From: Sebaldella termitidis ATCC 33386
Lineage (GTDB): Bacteria; Fusobacteriota; Fusobacteriia; Fusobacteriales; Leptotrichiaceae
Assembly (NCBI RefSeq): GCF_000024405.1
Contig: NC_013517.1
Coordinates: 3,813,989 to 3,877,988, forward strand
Direction of reading: 5' to 3'
DNA: 64,000 bases
Positions 3,723 to 11,824 of the stretch are shown piece after piece; position 1 is the stretch's first letter, and every line of letters starts with the position of its first letter. A model generated the notes under the pieces. That model did no database searches. It was given only the letters and a program-made list of their open reading frames with translations, and was not told where the DNA came from. The position numbers were made by a program, and so were the translations under genes.

Positions 3723-3821
3723 AATTTTCCTCCCCTGCTTTTTCAAATTATATCATTTTTAAAATAATTATGTAAATATCAATTAATATTCTGTCCCTAA
3801 ATACAGATTTTTATTGCAATT

Positions 3822-3850
3822 AAAAAGACTGTCTTAATAAAGACAGCCTG
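3822..3850 (-). terminator. Intrinsic terminator of candidate small RNA A
   Basis: Minus-strand stem AGGCTGTCTT / AAGACAGTCT with one G-U pair and a four-base loop, followed by five U residues. Confidence 0.7.
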
Positions 3851-4040
3851 AAAGTTTAAAATAAAATTTCTGGAGAGATTTCAGCACCCTGTTTTATACA
3901 GTCTTAAAAATAACTGCTAAGACCGGATGCGAGTGTTAATTACCTGTTGACTTTTTTCCCGACAGTATAAAGACTTTATTCCGATACTTTTAACCCAAAA
4001 AACTCCAATTTTTTAAATTATATAAATTTTTATACTGTTT
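3822..4040 (-). ncRNA. Candidate small RNA A (paralogue of the one at 10168-10381)
   Basis: Read on the minus strand, a -10-like TATTAT (4047-4052) sits 9 bp below a TTCACA-N5-TTCACA direct repeat (4062-4078). The transcript would begin near 4040 with a stem formed by CAGTATAAA-type arms (4029-4037 with 3963-3971), carry GGAGTTTTTTGG in the loop, contain UCUCUCC (3872-3878) and end in an intrinsic terminator at 3822-3850. It has no convincing ORF. The segment 3963-4079 aligns without gaps to 10304-10420, with about two thirds of positions identical by hand count. The upstream permease stops at 4094, so this could be its 3' tail, but the promoter-like signals argue for an independent RNA of about 215 nt. 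Confidence 0.45.
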
Positions 4041-4046
4041 GATATT

Positions 4047-4078
4047 ATAATACTACTCCTATGTGAAGACAATGTGAA
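4047..4078 (-). promoter_or_regulatory. TTCACA direct-repeat promoter A
   Basis: Minus-strand TTCACA hexamers occupy 4073-4078 and 4062-4067, exactly 11 bp apart, followed after 9 bp by TATTAT (4047-4052). Tandem hexamers with 11-bp periodicity upstream of a -10 are typical of OmpR/PhoB/PhoP-type response regulators. The same arrangement recurs at 10388-10419. Confidence 0.5.
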
Positions 4079-4093
4079 TAAAAAAAATATTTT

Positions 4094-5110
4094 TTATATT
4101 TTCATATCCCCTTGTTTTATAAGTCCAGTTTTTCTCATAATACCTGATACTAAAAGAGCTATTACCGCCGGAAATATAAAATGCAGAAGAAGCATGGGAA
4201 TAAGAGACTTTTCTCCCATCACTTCAAATGTAGTAAACTGCCCCACAAGACCGCTTGTACCCATTCCTGCACCTATTTTATTATTTTCCATTTTAAATAT
4301 TGCTGCACCTACTCCCCCGAGTATTACCGAAGCTGCCATCGGAGGAACCAGAATAAGGGGATTCTTTATACTGTTCGCCATCTGAAGCTTTGAAGTTCCC
4401 AGTCCATGTGAAATAAGACCGTTAAATCCGTTGTCTTTATATCCCGCCACTGCAAAGCCCACCATATGACAGGCACATCCTATAGTCGCAGCACCAGCCG
4501 ACAGTCCTGACAGACCTAGAGATATTGCCACAGCTGCGCTGCTTATCGGAGAAGTTATTATTATTCCCATTATTAATGCCACAAGAATTCCCATAGGCAG
4601 AGGATTTAGATTAGTAGATTTATTTATTATGTTTCCTATAAGCATCATAAATCTGCTGATATAGGGTGAAGCAAATATGCTTATCACACCGCCTGCTATG
4701 ATAGTAATTCCCGGAACAACAATAATATCACACTTGGTTTTTCCAAATACTGCTTTTGATGCAAGTGCTCCTGCCACACTGGCTGCAAGCGACCCTACCG
4801 GCTCTCCCGATGCCAGTATATATGAGCTTCCTCCGTATTTAATAGTTCCTGCACCGAGCATTCCGCATACTACAGATGCAAAAACTCCCAGTGGCGGTGC
4901 TTCCAGTGATAATGCCACACCTGCACCTATAGCCGGTCCCATCATATACTGTGCTACCTGCCCAAACATAATTAATTCCTGAATATTCAGATATGTTCCG
5001 ATCTGTTTCAGTATTACCCCTGTCACCAGTGACGCCATTAACCCAAGTGCCATCCCGTTCAAAATTTTTACCAAAGTATTGTTCAAAAATCCTGCTTCTT
5101 GTTTTTTCAA
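4094..5110 (-). CDS. PTS EIIC-like permease, candidate niacin-pathway transporter
   Basis: A 338-residue polytopic membrane protein of the PTS_EIIC_2 type (PF13303-like), with about nine or ten hydrophobic segments and many Gly/Ala-rich helices such as GMALGLMASLVTGVIL and MGPAIGAGVALSLEAPP. Members of this family often stand alone without EIIA or EIIB domains, and none is encoded here, so phosphorylation-coupled sugar import is doubtful. The start follows an AGGAGAAG ribosome site. The gene lies 30 bp downstream of niaR on the same strand. NiaR regulons are known to include uncharacterised membrane proteins thought to import niacin, so a role in nicotinic acid or nicotinamide uptake is a reasonable inference. 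A generic sugar permease remains the alternative. Confidence 0.8.
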   Translation of the reverse strand: MKKQEAGFLNNTLVKILNGMALGLMASLVTGVILKQIGTYLNIQELIMFGQVAQYMMGPAIGAGVALSLEAPPLGVFASVVCGMLGAGTIKYGGSSYILASGEPVGSLAASVAGALASKAVFGKTKCDIIVVPGITIIAGGVISIFASPYISRFMMLIGNIINKSTNLNPLPMGILVALIMGIIITSPISSAAVAISLGLSGLSAGAATIGCACHMVGFAVAGYKDNGFNGLISHGLGTSKLQMANSIKNPLILVPPMAASVILGGVGAAIFKMENNKIGAGMGTSGLVGQFTTFEVMGEKSLIPMLLLHFIFPAVIALLVSGIMRKTGLIKQGDMKI

Positions 5111-5140
5111 TTCTCTTCTCCTTTTGTATATAAAAAATTT

Positions 5141-5695
5141 TTATATTATCAAATATCCTTTTTTCAGCAGCTCGTTTTTTATTTTCTCAAAGCTCTCTTT
5201 ATTCGTTGTTTCAATGGTATGCATATGAAGTCCGTCAGTAAGTGAACATAAAGGCTCTACTCTTGATGCTTCCAGTTTTTCCATAAATTTTTCAATATCA
5301 TCTTTAGTTCTTATATTCAGATTTCCTTTTACCTCACCGTAAACACCATGCTCCACAAATACATCCAGTACTTTCCCACCATGATTTACTATTATTCCCA
5401 GCTCGTCCTCCAGCTCATATTTTCCTGAATGACGGCAGACGATAGTATTAAGAACTCCTTCCCGCCTGAGCTTTATGTATCCGTTCGGAGTAGCTATGAT
5501 ATCCTCTCCGGTTGCTCTCAAAAGAGATATATCCTGTACTATTACCTGCCTTGAAACATTAAATTTTTTCCCCAAAGCACTTCCTTTTACACTTTCAGAA
5601 GATTCATTTAATATTTTCAATATTTGGTTTCTTCTTTCCTGATTATCCAAAATTTTACACCTCATTTCACACTGTATATTCTTCTGTCTTGTCAC
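5141..5695 (-). CDS. niaR: NiaR niacin-responsive repressor (HTH_11 plus 3H domain)
   Basis: Repressor of NAD synthesis and niacin-uptake genes, using nicotinic acid as co-repressor. An N-terminal HTH_11 winged helix (ERRNQILKIL through VSRQVIVQDISLLR) is followed by a 3H domain carrying the metal-binding His residues in CRHSGKYE and LTDGLHMHTI. The open frame begins at a GTG (5695) with no spaced ribosome site; an ATG at 5665 or, best supported, a TTG at 5650 preceded by GAGGTG gives a start MDNQERR like known NiaR proteins, so the real gene is probably 160-170 residues. It is followed 30 bp later by the EIIC-like permease and is divergent from the hydrogenase operon. NiaR is known in Fusobacteria. 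Confidence 0.88.
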   Translation of the reverse strand: MTRQKNIQCEMRCKILDNQERRNQILKILNESSESVKGSALGKKFNVSRQVIVQDISLLRATGEDIIATPNGYIKLRREGVLNTIVCRHSGKYELEDELGIIVNHGGKVLDVFVEHGVYGEVKGNLNIRTKDDIEKFMEKLEASRVEPLCSLTDGLHMHTIETTNKESFEKIKNELLKKGYLII

Positions 5696-5809
5696 CTTTG
5701 ATATTTAATTTATCATATTTTGAAGTTTTTTTCAAACTTTATTTTCAAAAAGTATGTATATAAAAATAATTTACACGATCTTATAATCTAATATTATAGA
5801 CCTAATTTA

Positions 5810-5872
5810 CTTTACATATGTAAAGCAAAGGAATATTTGTTCTTGACAATAAAAAAATTTTGAGCCTATAAT
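5810..5872 (+). promoter_or_regulatory. hydCBA promoter with upstream 16-bp palindrome
   Basis: TTGACA (5843-5848) and TATAAT (5867-5872) are separated by 18 bp and point at hydC. A perfect palindrome, CTTTACATATGTAAAG, spans 5810-5825. If transcription starts about 7 bp after the -10, the palindrome is centred near -61.5, a common class I activator position. It could equally serve the divergent niaR gene. Confidence 0.6.
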
Positions 5873-5953
5873 TTATTACAGACTGTATTTTACCTGATAT
5901 GAAAATAAATTGTTTCTATTTATAAAGATTTCTAGAAAAGGCGGTTGATAAGT

Positions 5954-6430
5954 ATGTGTCCAAACCGATTAAAAGAAAACGGATTCAGGGAGCTGGAGTC
6001 TTATATAAATTCACTGGATACCAAGGAGGAAGCATTAATCACAGTTTTACATAAAGCTCAGGAAATCTTCGGTTATCTTCCCAAAGAGGTACAGGAATTT
6101 ATCGCCGACAAACTCAATGAACCCCTTGCCCGTGTTTACGGCGTCGTTAGTTTTTATTCATTTTTTACCATGATTCCCAAAGGAGATATTGCAATATCCG
6201 TCTGTCTGGGAACAGCCTGCTTCGTCAGAGGAGCAGAAAAGGTACTAGATGAGTTTCAAAGCAGGCTTGGAATAAAAGCAGGCGAAACCTCTCCCGACGG
6301 AAAATTTTCACTGGATGTGCTGCGCTGCATAGGTGCCTGCGGAATCGCCCCTGTGGTGCTGGTAAACGGGAAAGTATACAAAAAAGTTGAAGCAGGTGAA
6401 GTAAAAAATATTGTTAGTGAATATATGTGA
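5954..6430 (+). CDS. hydC: HydC/NuoE-type [2Fe-2S] subunit of the hydrogenase
   Basis: Thioredoxin-fold [2Fe-2S] subunit of a trimeric, NAD- and ferredoxin-linked [FeFe]-hydrogenase (HydABC/HndA type) in the cytoplasm. The 158-residue protein has the helical N-terminal NuoE region (residues 10-75, with EIFGYLPKEVQEFI) and the cluster-binding Cys motifs CLGTAC near residue 88 and RCIGACG near 130. The usual NuoE length is about 150-170. I chose ATG 5954 because AGGCGG lies 9 bp before it; the upstream in-frame TTG abuts the ribosome site. It is the first gene of the hydCBA operon: its stop lies 14 bp before the next start. A consensus promoter lies about 80 bp upstream. Confidence 0.93.
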   Translation: MCPNRLKENGFRELESYINSLDTKEEALITVLHKAQEIFGYLPKEVQEFIADKLNEPLARVYGVVSFYSFFTMIPKGDIAISVCLGTACFVRGAEKVLDEFQSRLGIKAGETSPDGKFSLDVLRCIGACGIAPVVLVNGKVYKKVEAGEVKNIVSEYM

Positions 6431-6444
6431 AGGGAGTGAAGTAT

Positions 6445-8289
6445 ATGCCCCGTGACGAACTTATTGAAAGACTCGAAGATATGAGAAGCAGTATTACCAA
6501 GGAAAGAAATTACAAAAAACAGGTACTTGTCTGCTGTGGAGTAAACTGTCTCACTTCGGGAAATGACATTATTCTGGATAAATTTCAGAGCAGGATGAAA
6601 GAAATGAGGCTGGATAACGAAATAAACGTAACAAAAACAGGCTGCTTCGGCTTTTGTGCCAGAGGCCCTATAGTAGAAATCCTCCCTGATAAAATCTTTT
6701 ATACTGAAATAACATTGGATGACGTTGACAAAATTATAGACAAACATCTCTTAAAAAATCAGGAAATCGAAGAACTCTTATACACCAATCCTCTTACCAA
6801 AGAAAAAATAAGCAAACCTAAAAATATGGACTTTTATAAAAAACAGAAAAAAATTGCTCTCAGAAACTGTGGTATTATTGATCCAGAAAATATAGACGAC
6901 TATGTTTTAGCTGACGGATATACTGCTTTGGACAAAGCTTTGAAAATGACTCCAGAAGAAGTCGTGGAAATCATCAAAAAATCAGGACTCAGAGGCCGCG
7001 GCGGTGCAGGCTTTCCTACTGGAAAAAAATGGGAAATAGCACTTCATAATAAGGCACCGAAAAAATATGTAGTCTGTAATGCTGATGAAGGTGATCCCGG
7101 AGCATTTATGGACAGATCTATCCTCGAAGGTGATCCTCATTCCATTGTGGAAGCTATGGCTGTCTGCGGTTATGCCATCGGAGCTGAATATGGTCTTGTA
7201 TATATCAGGGCAGAATACCCTAATGCAATGAAAATCCTTGCTAAAGCTATAAAAGATGCAAAAAATCACGGCTTTCTCGGGAAAAATATTTATAATACCA
7301 ATTTTAATTTTGATATTCAGCTGAAATATGGTGCCGGTGCTTTTGTCTGCGGCGAAGAAACCGCTCTTATACGTTCCATGCAGGGAAAAAGAGGGGAGCC
7401 TGTTAATAAACCGCCGTTTCCCGCAGAAAGAGGATATAAAAATTCTCCTACCAATGTAAATAATGTGGAAACTTTAGCTAATATTCCGGTTATTATAAAA
7501 AAAGGCGCAGAATGGTTCAGATCCTTTGGTACTGAAAATTCACCGGGAACAAAGGTATTTGCCCTTGCCGGAAAAATTAACAATACCGGTCTTATAGAAG
7601 TCCCTATGGGAACTACACTAAGAGAAATTATATACGAAATCGGCGGCGGAATCAAAAACGGCAAAAAATTCAAAGCTGTCCAGACAGGAGGACCGTCAGG
7701 AGGCTGTCTTACTATGGATGATCTGGATACTCCCATTGATTTTGACAATCTTGTTGCCAAAGGCTCTATGATGGGTTCCGGAGGTATGATTATTATGGAT
7801 GAAGATAACTGCATGCCTGCCGTGGCAAAATTCTACCTTGATTTTACCGTGGATGAATCCTGCGGAAAATGTACTCCGTGCAGAATAGGAAATAAAAGAC
7901 TTCTTGAAATATTAAAAAGAATAACTGATGGTGAAGGAACTGAGGATGATCTGGATACACTAAAAGAGCTTTCACTAATTATAAAAGATTCTGCATTATG
8001 CGGCTTGGGACAGACAGCTCCAAATCCTGTTCTTTCTACTCTTGAAAAATTCTGGGATGAATATGTCGCCCACGTAAGAGATAAAAAATGCCCTTCCGGA
8101 CAGTGTAAAGCTTTGATAAAATATGTAATAAACAACAAATGTATAGGGTGTACGCTCTGTGCAAGAATCTGCCCCGAATCCTGCATTACCGGAAGCCCGA
8201 AACAAAGACATTATATTGATGCCGAAAAGTGTATTAAATGCGGTTCATGTTATGAGGCCTGTAAATTTCATGCAATTAACAGAGATTAA
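6445..8289 (+). CDS. hydB: HydB/NuoF-type flavoprotein subunit of the hydrogenase
   Basis: NADH-binding flavoprotein subunit of the trimeric hydrogenase. Domains in order: an N-terminal thioredoxin-like [2Fe-2S] domain (Cys in VCCGVNC and GCFGFCARG, about residues 25-110); the NuoF core with GRGGAGFPTGKKW and CNADEGDPGAF for FMN/NADH (about 180-240); an SLBB region; the N3-type [4Fe-4S] motif SCGKCTPCRIG (about 480); and two C-terminal ferredoxin clusters (CIGCTLCARICP and CIKCGSCYEAC). This layout matches HydB of Thermotoga and HndC of Desulfovibrio rather than complex I NuoF. ATG 6445 has AGGGAG 8 bp upstream; a GTG start at 6427 is less likely. HydB is thought to be the NADH-binding, bifurcating flavin subunit. 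It lies between hydC and hydA. Confidence 0.94.
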   Translation: MPRDELIERLEDMRSSITKERNYKKQVLVCCGVNCLTSGNDIILDKFQSRMKEMRLDNEINVTKTGCFGFCARGPIVEILPDKIFYTEITLDDVDKIIDKHLLKNQEIEELLYTNPLTKEKISKPKNMDFYKKQKKIALRNCGIIDPENIDDYVLADGYTALDKALKMTPEEVVEIIKKSGLRGRGGAGFPTGKKWEIALHNKAPKKYVVCNADEGDPGAFMDRSILEGDPHSIVEAMAVCGYAIGAEYGLVYIRAEYPNAMKILAKAIKDAKNHGFLGKNIYNTNFNFDIQLKYGAGAFVCGEETALIRSMQGKRGEPVNKPPFPAERGYKNSPTNVNNVETLANIPVIIKKGAEWFRSFGTENSPGTKVFALAGKINNTGLIEVPMGTTLREIIYEIGGGIKNGKKFKAVQTGGPSGGCLTMDDLDTPIDFDNLVAKGSMMGSGGMIIMDEDNCMPAVAKFYLDFTVDESCGKCTPCRIGNKRLLEILKRITDGEGTEDDLDTLKELSLIIKDSALCGLGQTAPNPVLSTLEKFWDEYVAHVRDKKCPSGQCKALIKYVINNKCIGCTLCARICPESCITGSPKQRHYIDAEKCIKCGSCYEACKFHAINRD

Positions 8290-8343
8290 TTATAAAGCAT
8301 GTCAGTTTGCACAATTAACTGAATCCCAAAAAGGAGGATATTT

Positions 8344-10107
8344 ATGAAACATAATTTAATCACCCTTACTATAGATCATAAAACTGTGGAAGTACCTGAA
8401 GGCACTACCATACTTGCTGCAGCTAAAAGTGTCGGCATTAGTATTCCTACTCTCTGTTACCTGAATCTTTCAGACTTCGGCTGTGTAAATACCCCGTCTT
8501 CTTGCAGAATGTGTCTTGTAGAAGTAGAAGGCAGAAGAAATCTTGCTCCTGCATGCGTTACTCCTGCTTCTGATAAAATGACAGTCAGTACTAACTCTGT
8601 AAGAGCACTGAAAACCAGAAAAACAATGCTGGAATTACTTCTTTCAGATCACCCGAAAGACTGCCTGACCTGTCAGAAATCAGGAAACTGTGAATTGCAG
8701 AGCCTTGCTGATAAATTTTCTATAAGAGATATAAAGCTGAAAGGAGAACAGTCTGCTTACAGACTGGATATCTCAAAATCCCTTATCCGTGATATGGATA
8801 AATGTATTATGTGCCGCCGCTGTGAAACAATGTGCAATGAAGTACAGACTGTAGGAGTATTATCTGCTATAAACAGAGGGTTTGAATCTGTTATTGCCAC
8901 TGCTATGGAAATAAATCTGAGTGACTCTGTATGCACATATTGCGGACAGTGTGCTGCCGTCTGTCCCACAGGAGCCTTGGTAGAGAATGATGCTACATGG
9001 GATGTTGTCAAAGCTTTGGGAGACCCGGAAAAAACAGTCATTGTCCAGACTGCTCCTTCGGTAAGGGCAGCACTCGGAGAAGAATTCGGGCTGGAGCCGG
9101 GAACACTTGTTACGGGTAAAATGGTGGCAGCATTGCGCGGTCTTGGTTTTGACAAGGTATTTGATACAGATTTTGGTGCTGATCTTACTATAATGGAAGA
9201 AGCTTCCGAATTTTTAGACAGATTAACACGGCATCTTGACGGTGACACCAGTGTAAAACTTCCTATACTTACTTCTTGCTGTCCTGCATGGGTAAACTTT
9301 TTTGAGCATAATTTCAGCGACCTTCTGGATGTTCCTTCCACTTCAAAATCTCCTATGCAGATGTTCAGTGCCGTAGTAAAAAATGTTTACGCTCAGGAGC
9401 TGGGTGTAGACAGAAAAAACCTTGTGGTTGTTTCTGTTATGCCTTGTCTTGCAAAAAAATACGAAGCAAGCCGTGATGAATTTTCAATAGGAAATGACTA
9501 TGATACTGATATCGTTCTTTCTACAAGGGAACTTGCAAAATTAATAAAACAATATAATATAGAATTTAATCTGCTGAAAGATGAAGAGTTTGATAATCCT
9601 CTCGGAGAATCAACAGGTGCAAGTATTATTTTCGGAAGAACAGGGGGAGTTATTGAAGCAGCGCTCAGAACAGCTGCTGACTGGTATACCAAAGAAGATC
9701 TGCAGGACATTGATTATACTCAGGTCAGAGGATTTGAAGGAGTTCGAAGTGCTGATGTAAAAATCGGCGATCTGGAGCTGAAAATCGGAATTGCTCATGG
9801 TCTGGGAGAAGCACGCAAGCTGCTTGAGGAAGTAAGAGCCGGAAAATCTGCATACCATGCTATAGAAATAATGGCCTGTAAAGGCGGATGTATCGGCGGC
9901 GGCGGACAGCCTTACCATCACGGGAATACTGCTATACTAAAGAAGCGAACCGAGGCGCTCAAAACTGAAGACGAATCTAAAAAAATCAGAAAATCCCATG
10001 AGAATCCTTATATTATAAAACTATATAAAGAGTATTTCGGAGAGCCTTTAAGCCACAGATCCCACGAATTACTGCATACAAAATATTTCAAAAAGCATAA
10101 AATATAA
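8344..10107 (+). CDS. hydA: HydA catalytic [FeFe]-hydrogenase subunit
   Basis: Makes or oxidises hydrogen at an H-cluster. N-terminal electron relay: [2Fe-2S] ligands C38, C54, C57, C71; His-ligated [4Fe-4S] H103, C107, C110, C116; two ferredoxin clusters at C154-C164 and C197-C207. H-cluster motifs: TSCCPAW (310-316), MPCLAKKYE (366-374) and MACKGGCIGGGGQP (510-523). The C-terminus carries the small-subunit domain with EYFGEPLSHRSHELLHTKY. All catalytic residues are present. AAAAGGAGG precedes the ATG. Together with HydB and HydC it should couple ferredoxin and NADH oxidation to H2 release (electron confurcation), although direction is inference. The maturases HydE, HydF and HydG are not in this window. 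A strong terminator follows. Confidence 0.96.
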   Translation: MKHNLITLTIDHKTVEVPEGTTILAAAKSVGISIPTLCYLNLSDFGCVNTPSSCRMCLVEVEGRRNLAPACVTPASDKMTVSTNSVRALKTRKTMLELLLSDHPKDCLTCQKSGNCELQSLADKFSIRDIKLKGEQSAYRLDISKSLIRDMDKCIMCRRCETMCNEVQTVGVLSAINRGFESVIATAMEINLSDSVCTYCGQCAAVCPTGALVENDATWDVVKALGDPEKTVIVQTAPSVRAALGEEFGLEPGTLVTGKMVAALRGLGFDKVFDTDFGADLTIMEEASEFLDRLTRHLDGDTSVKLPILTSCCPAWVNFFEHNFSDLLDVPSTSKSPMQMFSAVVKNVYAQELGVDRKNLVVVSVMPCLAKKYEASRDEFSIGNDYDTDIVLSTRELAKLIKQYNIEFNLLKDEEFDNPLGESTGASIIFGRTGGVIEAALRTAADWYTKEDLQDIDYTQVRGFEGVRSADVKIGDLELKIGIAHGLGEARKLLEEVRAGKSAYHAIEIMACKGGCIGGGGQPYHHGNTAILKKRTEALKTEDESKKIRKSHENPYIIKLYKEYFGEPLSHRSHELLHTKYFKKHKI

Positions 10108-10111
10108 ATAT

Positions 10112-10146
10112 AAAACAGCTGGTAAGAAAAAAACAGCTGTTTTTAT
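10112..10146 (+). terminator. Terminator of the hydCBA operon
   Basis: AAAACAGCTG at 10112-10121 pairs with CAGCTGTTTT at 10134-10143 and runs into a T-rich tract, directly after hydA. Confidence 0.85.
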
Positions 10147-10167
10147 TTTATAATTATTATTTCTGTC

Positions 10168-10201
10168 AAAAAAAGAGGCTTGGCAGCTGCCAACCCCTTT
10201 T
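10168..10201 (-). terminator. Terminator of candidate small RNA B
   Basis: A near-palindrome with perfect core TTGGCAGCTGCCAA (10180-10193) is followed on the minus strand by a seven-U run (10174-10168). No minus-strand protein gene ends within 350 bp, which implies a separate minus-strand transcript. The plus strand has only a short T run, so it may also back up hydA termination. Confidence 0.7.
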
Positions 10202-10381
10202 AGGTGTAAATTTAGGAGATAAGGTTTCTCTTTCAGCTGTTTCAGTATTCTCACATAAATTCTGAAACATTCTCTTCAAAACCCTTTTTCTTGCATTTAC
10301 CCGCAGTATATAATACTATTTTCAAAACTTTTTACCAAAAACTCCCGGATTAACTACATTAACAAAAATATTATACTGCTT
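10168..10381 (-). ncRNA. Candidate small RNA B (paralogue of the one at 3822-4040)
   Basis: On the minus strand a TTCACA-N5-TTCACA repeat (10403-10419) and TATTAT (10388-10393) would start a transcript near 10381. It opens with a stem whose arms start CAGTATA (10372-10378 with 10304-10310) and whose loop holds GGGAGTTTTTGG. It includes UAUCUCCUAAAUUU (10208-10221), which could pair with AGGAGA-type ribosome sites, and ends in the terminator at 10168-10201. No credible ORF is present: the longest runs into the terminator and lacks a ribosome site. Spacing and order of all elements match candidate A. The nearest upstream minus gene (glycerate kinase) ends 175 bp before the promoter. Predicted length is about 210 nt. 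Confidence 0.5.
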
Positions 10382-10387
10382 ATATAC

Positions 10388-10419
10388 ATAATATTATTTC
10401 AATGTGAAAATAATGTGAA
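10388..10419 (-). promoter_or_regulatory. TTCACA direct-repeat promoter B
   Basis: Minus-strand TTCACA at 10414-10419 and 10403-10408, 11 bp apart, then TATTAT at 10388-10393, 9 bp downstream. Geometry is identical to 4047-4078. Confidence 0.5.
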
Positions 10420-10554
10420 TAATAAAAAAATTCTGCGTATATTTATACAGAATATGAACTAATTCTCTTTAAATATAAAAAAGAACTGTCTCAAAATATT
10501 TTTTTATTTCAATAATTTTATATCAAAATCTATTTTGAAGCAATTCTTTATATA

Positions 10555-11700
10555 TTAATTTTTTTTATTCTGTTTTATAAGTCTGAATATCTGTTCTGCT
10601 GTTTTTTCTACCAGTCTTTGTGCATTTTTTGTATCCATAGCTTCACCAAGAGTCATCGGTGAATCTATTATTGAAAAAGCTGCTGTAATACCGCAGTCAT
10701 ATATATTACCTATCTCATCATCAACACTTCCGCCTATTGCTATAACAGGAATTCCGTATTTTTTAGCCAGCTTTGCCACTCCTGACGGTGTTTTTCCCAT
10801 CGCCGACTGAAAATCTATTCTTCCTTCTCCCGTAATAACATAGTCCGAACCGTTTATCTTATTTTCCAATTCTATTTTTTCAGTAATGATATCTATTCCT
10901 GGTTTCAATTCTGAATTAAAAAAGGCTGTAAATGCTCCTCCAAGTCCTCCTGCTGCTCCTGAACCGGAAATATTTGAAATATCAGTTTTTTTTATTTTTT
11001 CTATTACATTTGAAAAATTTCTCATGCCGTCATCAAGTATTTTTATAATATCACCGGTAGCACCTTTTTGTTTCCCGTATACATGGGCGGCACCGTTAGT
11101 TCCGTAAAAAGGATTGTCCACATCACATGCAATCAGAAATTTTGCTTCTGACACTTCTTTCATGACTTTATCATCCTTAAAACTTTTTATATTAATAAGA
11201 TTCTCTCCGTTTGGTTCCAATTCATTCCCGTTTTCATCCAGAAATATATATCCAAGAGCTGAAAGCATCCCTGTACCTGCATCATTAGTCGCACTTCCCC
11301 CAATTCCTATAATAAACTCCCGGCATCCTTTTTCAAGAGCATCTTTTATCAGCTCTCCTGTTCCGAATGTCGTAGCTTTTAGAGGATTGCGTTCGTCCGG
11401 GCTGAGAAGCGGGAGTCCGCTTGCTGCTGCCATCTCTATTACTGCTGTTTTCCCGTCTCCAGAAATGCCGTAAAATGAATCTATATCACGCATCAAAGGA
11501 TCCTTCACCTTAATATTGACCATTTTTCCGTCCAGATTATCTATCAGTGCTTTTACCGTTCCTTCCCCGCCGTCTGCAAGAGGAATTTTTATGAATTCGG
11601 CATCCTTATATACTTTTTTTACACCTTTTTCAAATGCTGCTGCTACTTCCAATGATGTCATACTGCCTTTAAATGAATCTATTGCTGCTACTACTTTCAC
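10555..11700 (-). CDS. glxK: Glycerate 2-kinase (GlxK/GarK family)
   Basis: Phosphorylates D-glycerate with ATP to 2-phosphoglycerate, feeding lower glycolysis. The 381-residue protein shows the family hallmarks AAIDSFKGSMTSLEVA at the N-terminus, PLADGGEGT near residue 50, GIGGSATNDAGTGML near 125, GAAGGLGGAF near 250 and the C-terminal GEGRIDFQSAMGKTPSGVA segment. I start at GTG 11700 because AAGGAGG lies 9 bp upstream; the frame remains open for 22 more codons without a ribosome site. An FCD-type GntR regulator gene lies 124 bp upstream on the same strand and is the obvious candidate controller. No glycerate or glycolate dehydrogenase is adjacent. Family call is secure. Confidence 0.94.
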   Translation of the reverse strand: MKVVAAIDSFKGSMTSLEVAAAFEKGVKKVYKDAEFIKIPLADGGEGTVKALIDNLDGKMVNIKVKDPLMRDIDSFYGISGDGKTAVIEMAAASGLPLLSPDERNPLKATTFGTGELIKDALEKGCREFIIGIGGSATNDAGTGMLSALGYIFLDENGNELEPNGENLINIKSFKDDKVMKEVSEAKFLIACDVDNPFYGTNGAAHVYGKQKGATGDIIKILDDGMRNFSNVIEKIKKTDISNISGSGAAGGLGGAFTAFFNSELKPGIDIITEKIELENKINGSDYVITGEGRIDFQSAMGKTPSGVAKLAKKYGIPVIAIGGSVDDEIGNIYDCGITAAFSIIDSPMTLGEAMDTKNAQRLVEKTAEQIFRLIKQNKKN

Positions 11701-11824
11701 TTTTTTACTCCTCCTTATTGGAATATAATATTCTTTAGTTATAAGATAAATTCTATATTTTGTCAATTTAATTCTGTATTTTTTCTTATCCCCGAATTAT
11801 TAATTTCAATCAGGTGCAGCAGTC

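What the first reader, a model, noticed from the sequence alone, without database searches (positions are those of the whole stretch)
10168..10420. Candidate small-RNA gene B, paralogue of A, between hydA and glycerate kinase
Seen: same promoter geometry, same stem arms and loop GGAGTTTTTGG, a UAUCUCCUAAAUUU segment, and a terminator with perfect core TTGGCAGCTGCCAA followed by seven U on the minus strand. No protein gene on that strand ends nearby, so the terminator has no other obvious owner. Two copies in one 64-kb window suggest a multi-copy family in this genome.
Basis: partly seen in the sequence, partly recalled or inferred. Interest (0 to 1): 0.78.

Follow-up and report, generated by a model that had tools for sequence, protein, structure and literature searches.

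The report
Stress-regulated small-RNA pair in Sebaldella
The spot holds a real-looking gene for a small regulatory RNA, one of a pair, that is probably switched on by a two-component sensor which also controls cell-envelope proteins, suggesting that these little-studied bacteria have an RNA arm to their envelope-stress response much as E. coli does.

Summary
The window lies in Sebaldella termitidis NCTC 11300 (replicon sizes match PMC3035275). B is a ~214-nt minus-strand transcription unit (about 10381..10168), conserved with its promoter, 5' hairpin, UAUCUCC segment and terminator in a second Sebaldella genome. Its paralogue A is conserved in all four Sebaldella genomes. A box-plus-hairpin covariance model finds exactly two copies here and none outside the genus, so 'multi-copy' means two. 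Rfam has no match.

The TTCACA-N5-TTCACA element is not specific to A and B. With a -10 box about 9 nt downstream, it fronts a regulon rich in exported and outer-membrane proteins (9 of 12 boxes against 18% background, p = 3e-5). Of eight OmpR-type regulators, only one has the box at its own operon, in all four Sebaldella and, degenerately, before a related regulator in other Fusobacteriales.

Best reading: A and B are paralogous trans-acting sRNAs forming the noncoding arm of a Cpx/OmpR-like envelope response, comparable in design to OmrA/OmrB but unrelated in sequence. Targets are unproven: exported-protein start sites were not enriched among predicted seed targets. No Hfq was detected. A third noncoding regulon member, C, was found. 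All evidence is in silico.

The parts
10403..10419 (-). TTCACA-N5-TTCACA direct repeat, presumed response-regulator box of B
   Evidence: Exact match; 11 exact sites in the whole genome against 1 for the reversed control pattern; kept in the G001 orthologue
10388..10393 (-). -10 box TATTAT, 9 nt from the second repeat; start of transcription inferred near 10381
   Evidence: Read; the 9-nt spacing is shared by all 12 one-mismatch regulon boxes listed
10168..10381 (-). sRNA gene B, about 214 nt (ends inferred from -10 box and U tract)
   Evidence: 77% identical over 253 nt in G001 at the syntenic place, E = 1.9e-43; fold better than all shuffles
10303..10379 (-). 5' hairpin closed by GCAGUAUA/UAUACUGC, paired in all copies; the outermost pair is G-C in B and A-U in A
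   Evidence: covariance model R1 finds A and B only in this genome
10335..10345 (-). Displayed motif GGAGUUUUUGG
   Evidence: GGAGUUUUU invariant in five aligned copies; the 9-mer occurs 60 times on both strands of 2.06 Mb
10205..10222 (-). UUAUCUCCUAAAUUUACA, candidate pairing segment (anti-Shine-Dalgarno-like)
   Evidence: Kept in G001 B with one change; UCUCC kept in A of G000, G001 and G003, changed to UCUCU in G002 A
10168..10203 (-). Intrinsic terminator, stem with core TTGGCAGCTGCCAA, then U7
   Evidence: stem conserved in G001 by pair-keeping changes (read)
3822..4040 (-). sRNA gene A, paralogue, about 219 nt; box at 4078-4062, -10 TATTAT at 4052-4047, terminator 3849-3822
   Evidence: orthologues in G001, G002 and G003

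Best explanation
A and B are two paralogous, independently transcribed regulatory RNAs that form the noncoding arm of an envelope-stress-type two-component regulon in Sebaldella. A response regulator of the OmpR/PhoB type, encoded with a histidine kinase behind a small exported Spy/CpxP-like protein (G000:C1 about 1237.9-1239.2 kb), is inferred to bind TTCACA-N5-TTCACA and to activate transcription from the -10 box 9 nt downstream. Each RNA has a 5' hairpin displaying GGAGUUUUU, a variable middle, a C-rich segment (UCUCC) and an intrinsic terminator. The RNAs most likely act in trans by pairing the UCUCC segment with ribosome-binding sites of target mRNAs and lowering their translation, without Hfq. 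Shown by sequence and comparison: gene unit, conservation, two copies, shared box, regulon content, regulator co-occurrence. Inferred: regulator binding, induction, trans pairing, identity and sign of targets. Separate estimates: real sRNA gene 0.9; control by this regulator 0.75; pairing with mRNA ribosome-binding sites as the mode of action 0.5.
For: Conservation of the complete unit in other Sebaldella genomes. A covariance model finds exactly two copies here, six in four Sebaldella genomes, none elsewhere among 80 genomes. Orthologues break fewer predicted pairs than random substitutions would: 14 against 22.8 for B, 8 against 19.4 and 8 against 14.7 for A. No conserved ORF (sequences). 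The box fronts exported-protein genes: 9 of 12 with a signal peptide against 18.5% background, p = 3.2e-5. Only one of eight OmpR-family regulators carries the box at its own operon, in all four Sebaldella; a 53-54% identical regulator in another genus has TTCATA-N5-TTCACA-N9-TATACT directly upstream. No Hfq found. C-rich segments are the pairing sites of the fusobacterial sRNAs FoxI and FoxJ (PMC11005410).
Against: No transcript data. No enrichment of signal-peptide genes among the best predicted targets of the A or B segment. The most attractive B target, the start site of a giant autotransporter, is not conserved in the G001 orthologue. UCUCC is UCUCU in G002 A. Regulator-box binding rests on co-occurrence only.
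Confidence: 0.6

Rival explanations
1. A and B are regulated sRNAs, but the working part is the displayed GGAGUUUUU loop rather than UCUCC: it acts as a ribosome-binding-site mimic or sponge that captures another RNA or a protein.
For: GGAGUUUUU is invariant in A and B copies and recurs in the unrelated regulon RNA C, although it is rare in the genome, 60 sites in 2.06 Mb on both strands. A of G003 carries an internal perfect complement, AAAAACUCCU (sequence).
Against: No partner known; complements of the loop near start codons are almost absent, 1 of 1756 genes. The UCUCC side is also conserved.
Confidence: 0.2
2. The transcript is only the processed 3' end of glycerate kinase mRNA, or a structured intergenic terminator region without function of its own.
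For: B lies downstream of glycerate kinase on the same strand, and the terminator scan reports no terminator between the gene and the B promoter.
Against: B has its own conserved box and -10. A, with the same 5' half, lies behind a different gene. A weak hairpin followed by T7 (10453-10424) precedes the B promoter. A persists in G003 in altered surroundings.
Confidence: 0.08
3. B encodes a very small peptide (dual-function or mRNA).
For: GGAGUUUU could serve as a ribosome-binding site for a UUG start in B (13 codons) and in G003 A (15 codons) (read).
Against: There is no start after GGAG in G001 B, and only 2-5 codons in G000 and G001 A; the frames are not alike (sequences).
Confidence: 0.03

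Closest known systems
OmrA/OmrB sRNAs of Enterobacterales (OmpR-controlled twins)
   Same: Two paralogous sRNAs from duplication, conserved ends and divergent middle, controlled by an OmpR-family regulator of envelope genes (PMC12692685)
   Different: No Rfam match; 214-219 nt instead of 82-88; about 6.3 kb apart instead of in one 600-bp intergenic region; no Hfq found; the candidate pairing segment is 3', not 5'; targets unknown
FoxI/FoxJ of Fusobacterium nucleatum
   Same: Pair of sRNAs tied to the envelope response in the same phylum, with C-rich pairing segments (PMC11005410)
   Different: FoxI/FoxJ are driven by sigma-E; A and B carry a tandem response-regulator-like box. Sequence relation not tested: the text read gives no FoxI/FoxJ sequence
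Cpx regulon with CpxP, Spy and CpxQ
   Same: Box-controlled small exported protein beside a regulator/kinase pair, envelope regulon, sRNA members (PMC6737893)
   Different: The regulator does not reach the NCBIfam cut-off for CpxR. The exported protein only weakly resembles Metal_resist, below cut-off. The box is TTCACA repeats; from memory, CpxR uses GTAAA repeats. A and B have their own promoters, unlike CpxQ.

Membership tests
Bacterial trans-encoded sRNA (general class) | Independent promoter and intrinsic terminator in intergenic DNA | tested here: met
   conserved in G001
Bacterial trans-encoded sRNA (general class) | No conserved coding frame | tested here: met
   Frames read on five orthologous or paralogous sequences
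Bacterial trans-encoded sRNA (general class) | Detected transcript | not testable with these tools
   No RNA data available
Bacterial trans-encoded sRNA (general class) | Base-pairing with target mRNAs | tested here: inconclusive
   No enrichment of exported-protein targets; the single candidate is not conserved
OmrA/OmrB family | Sequence and structure match to a described Rfam family | tested here: not met
   No family reaches its gathering score
FoxI/FoxJ (sigma-E sRNAs) | Sigma-E promoter | tested here: inconclusive
   A and B have a tandem box plus a sigma-70-like -10; the fusobacterial sigma-E motif is shown only in a figure of PMC11005410 and could not be compared
OmpR/PhoB-family response regulator (candidate activator) | Receiver domain plus winged-helix Trans_reg_C domain | tested here: met
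   PF00072 at 106.7 bits and PF00486 at 82.4 bits, both over cut-off
CpxR orthologue | NCBIfam CpxR equivalog cut-off (341 bits) | tested here: not met
   125.9 bits

The most novel reading that the evidence does not exclude
A, B and the unrelated regulon RNA C form a set of response-regulator-driven RNAs that all display a GGAGUUUUU ribosome-binding-site mimic and work as decoys or sponges, or by feedback on the regulator operon's intercistronic hairpin, rather than by ordinary antisense seeds: an Hfq-independent noncoding arm of an envelope response peculiar to Fusobacteriota.
Probability: 0.12. Interest if true: 0.72.

Novelty: new member of a known kind. Interest (0 to 1): 0.5.

Why it matters
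The only described noncoding arm of an envelope response in Fusobacteriota that I found in the searched literature is the sigma-E pair FoxI/FoxJ. A pair of sRNAs under a two-component system would show that the twin-sRNA design known from OmrA/OmrB arose independently in a distant, apparently Hfq-less phylum. The work also yields a defined operator (TTCACA-N5-TTCACA-N9-TANNNT), a candidate regulator and a first regulon list for Sebaldella.

Tried and rejected
Rfam scans, strict and permissive: nothing above cut-off. Plasmid BLAST: no match. Genome-wide complement searches for the A and B segments: hit numbers for B are below control; the one attractive start-site hit, a giant autotransporter, is not conserved in G001. 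Duplex ranking of 1756 start regions: no enrichment of exported proteins. Loop complement AAAAACTCC near starts: 1 of 1756. GGAG-CUCC intramolecular kissing: only 4-5 pairs, and the flanking pair fails in G003 (sequences). Peptide-coding reading: frames not conserved. A genome-contig scan for the B segment found nothing; the tool notes that the window's own genome or near ones may be left out there. F. nucleatum CarR as the regulator: CarR has its own 17-bp AT-rich motif (PMC12186487), and the passages read give no sequence that could be compared with TTCACA.

Full report
Identity of the window. The genome holding the window has 4,486,650 bases in three contigs, the largest 4,418,842. These are the published figures for Sebaldella termitidis NCTC 11300 (PMC3035275), a termite-gut member of the Leptotrichiaceae, Fusobacteriota.

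Observation. All elements reported at 10168-10420 exist. The tandem TTCACA-N5-TTCACA with up to one mismatch occurs only at A (4078-4062) and B (10419-10403) in the window, both exact, with 0.35 expected. The terminator at 10193-10168 is the only one found in 10080-10600. Folding of B and A is better than all 200 shuffles.

Is it a gene? The B unit is found at the same place in a second Sebaldella genome, G001: 77% identity over 253 nt, E = 1.9e-43. Its box, stem arms, loop, ACCTTATCTCCTAARTTTACAYCTA segment and terminator are all kept. A is found at the syntenic place in G001 and G003. A covariance model of box plus hairpin, built from five copies, then found a sixth copy in G002 with 113.8 bits and nothing comparable outside Sebaldella among 80 genomes. 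The S. termitidis genome holds exactly two copies. The closing stem is paired in all five sequences, with one G-C to A-U exchange separating B from A; the other pairs of that stem never vary, so covariation there is weak. Over the whole predicted fold, orthologues break fewer pairs than random placement of the same number of substitutions (14 against 22.8 for B; 8 against 19.4 and 8 against 14.7 for A). No ORF is conserved (sequences). B cannot be a leader: downstream it meets the convergent end of hydA. The gene beyond A has its own 11-of-12 promoter.

What controls it? The box is present 11 times, exactly, in the genome, against 1 for the reversed pattern. Besides A, B and C, seven sites precede genes whose products begin with signal-peptide-like sequence, and one is unclear (read). 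In 2.06 Mb of the genome (1756 ORFs called by script, with a simple signal-peptide rule), 12 boxes with at most one mismatch and a -10 lie upstream of ORFs. All have a 9-nt spacer, and 9 precede predicted signal-peptide genes against 18.5% background, p = 3.2e-5. Letter-permuted hexamers give 0-1, except TCACAT (8), which is TTCACA read one base out of register. One product is an OMP_b-brl outer-membrane protein; a box in the distant relative G004 precedes an LTXXQ (Spy/CpxP) protein.

Of eight OmpR-family regulators in the genome, only one has the box at its own operon: small exported protein, response regulator, histidine kinase. The arrangement, with box, is present in all four Sebaldella, with the regulator 85-100% identical. 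A 53-54% identical regulator in another Fusobacteriales genus has TTCATA-N5-TTCACA-N9-TATACT just upstream. This regulator is therefore the best candidate activator. It is an OmpR/PhoB-type protein but not a CpxR orthologue by NCBIfam cut-off, and its small exported partner only weakly resembles Metal_resist.

How might it act? The UCUCC segment before the terminator is suited to pair with Shine-Dalgarno sequences. C-rich segments are the pairing sites of FoxI and FoxJ (PMC11005410). The genome has no detectable Hfq. However, ranking start regions by duplex energy gives no excess of exported proteins. The best-looking single target is not conserved, and UCUCC is UCUCU in G002 A. A possible feedback site in the regulator operon is only weakly supported. 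The alternative that the GGAGUUUUU loop is the working part is kept open because the motif recurs in a third regulon RNA, C.

Comparison. In design, the pair resembles OmrA/OmrB: twin sRNAs of an OmpR-family regulon with conserved ends and divergent middles (PMC12692685). It is not a member of that family, or of any Rfam family, at the curated scores. It differs from FoxI/FoxJ in its tandem-box promoter. Verdict: a new, genus-restricted sRNA family of a known general kind, with an unusually well-defined regulatory context and unknown targets. All statements about expression, regulator binding and targets remain to be tested.

Noticed in passing
L044:1184-1400 (+) (G000:C1:1204683): Third candidate noncoding RNA, C, with an exact TTCACA box, no ORF of 30 aa or more in the transcribed stretch, conserved in G001 (86%) and G002 (93%). 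Its end holds AAGGAGTTTTTTGAAGAAAAAAGTTATTTTTCTTTTAGCA, readable as a ribosome-binding site plus UUG-started MKKKVIFLLA, or as a terminator stem.
   Followed up: partly
L172:2140-2381 (G000:C1 about 1238.55-1238.79 kb): Between the small exported protein gene and the response regulator lies a long hairpin (GGAGAAATAAATA / TATTTATTTCTCC) kept in all four Sebaldella. The A segment can pair with its 5' edge (TTTTGGAGA) at the same site in G000, G001 and G003, shuffle fractions 0.15, 0.05 and 0.03: possible feedback.
   Followed up: partly
G000:C1:1233954-1239198 (in L233): Three more small exported-protein genes, each with a one-mismatch box, lie next to the regulator operon.
   Followed up: no
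G000 genome-wide, e.g. G000:C1:3723544 (L162): 47 matches in the genome to the N-terminus of one giant autotransporter-like protein, most in open frames of 2100-2800 codons, a very large family.
   Followed up: no
L043 (G003) against window 3800-11800: In G003 the syntenic locus lacks both the hydrogenase cluster and B, while A is present; B may have arisen or arrived together with the hydrogenase genes.
   Followed up: partly
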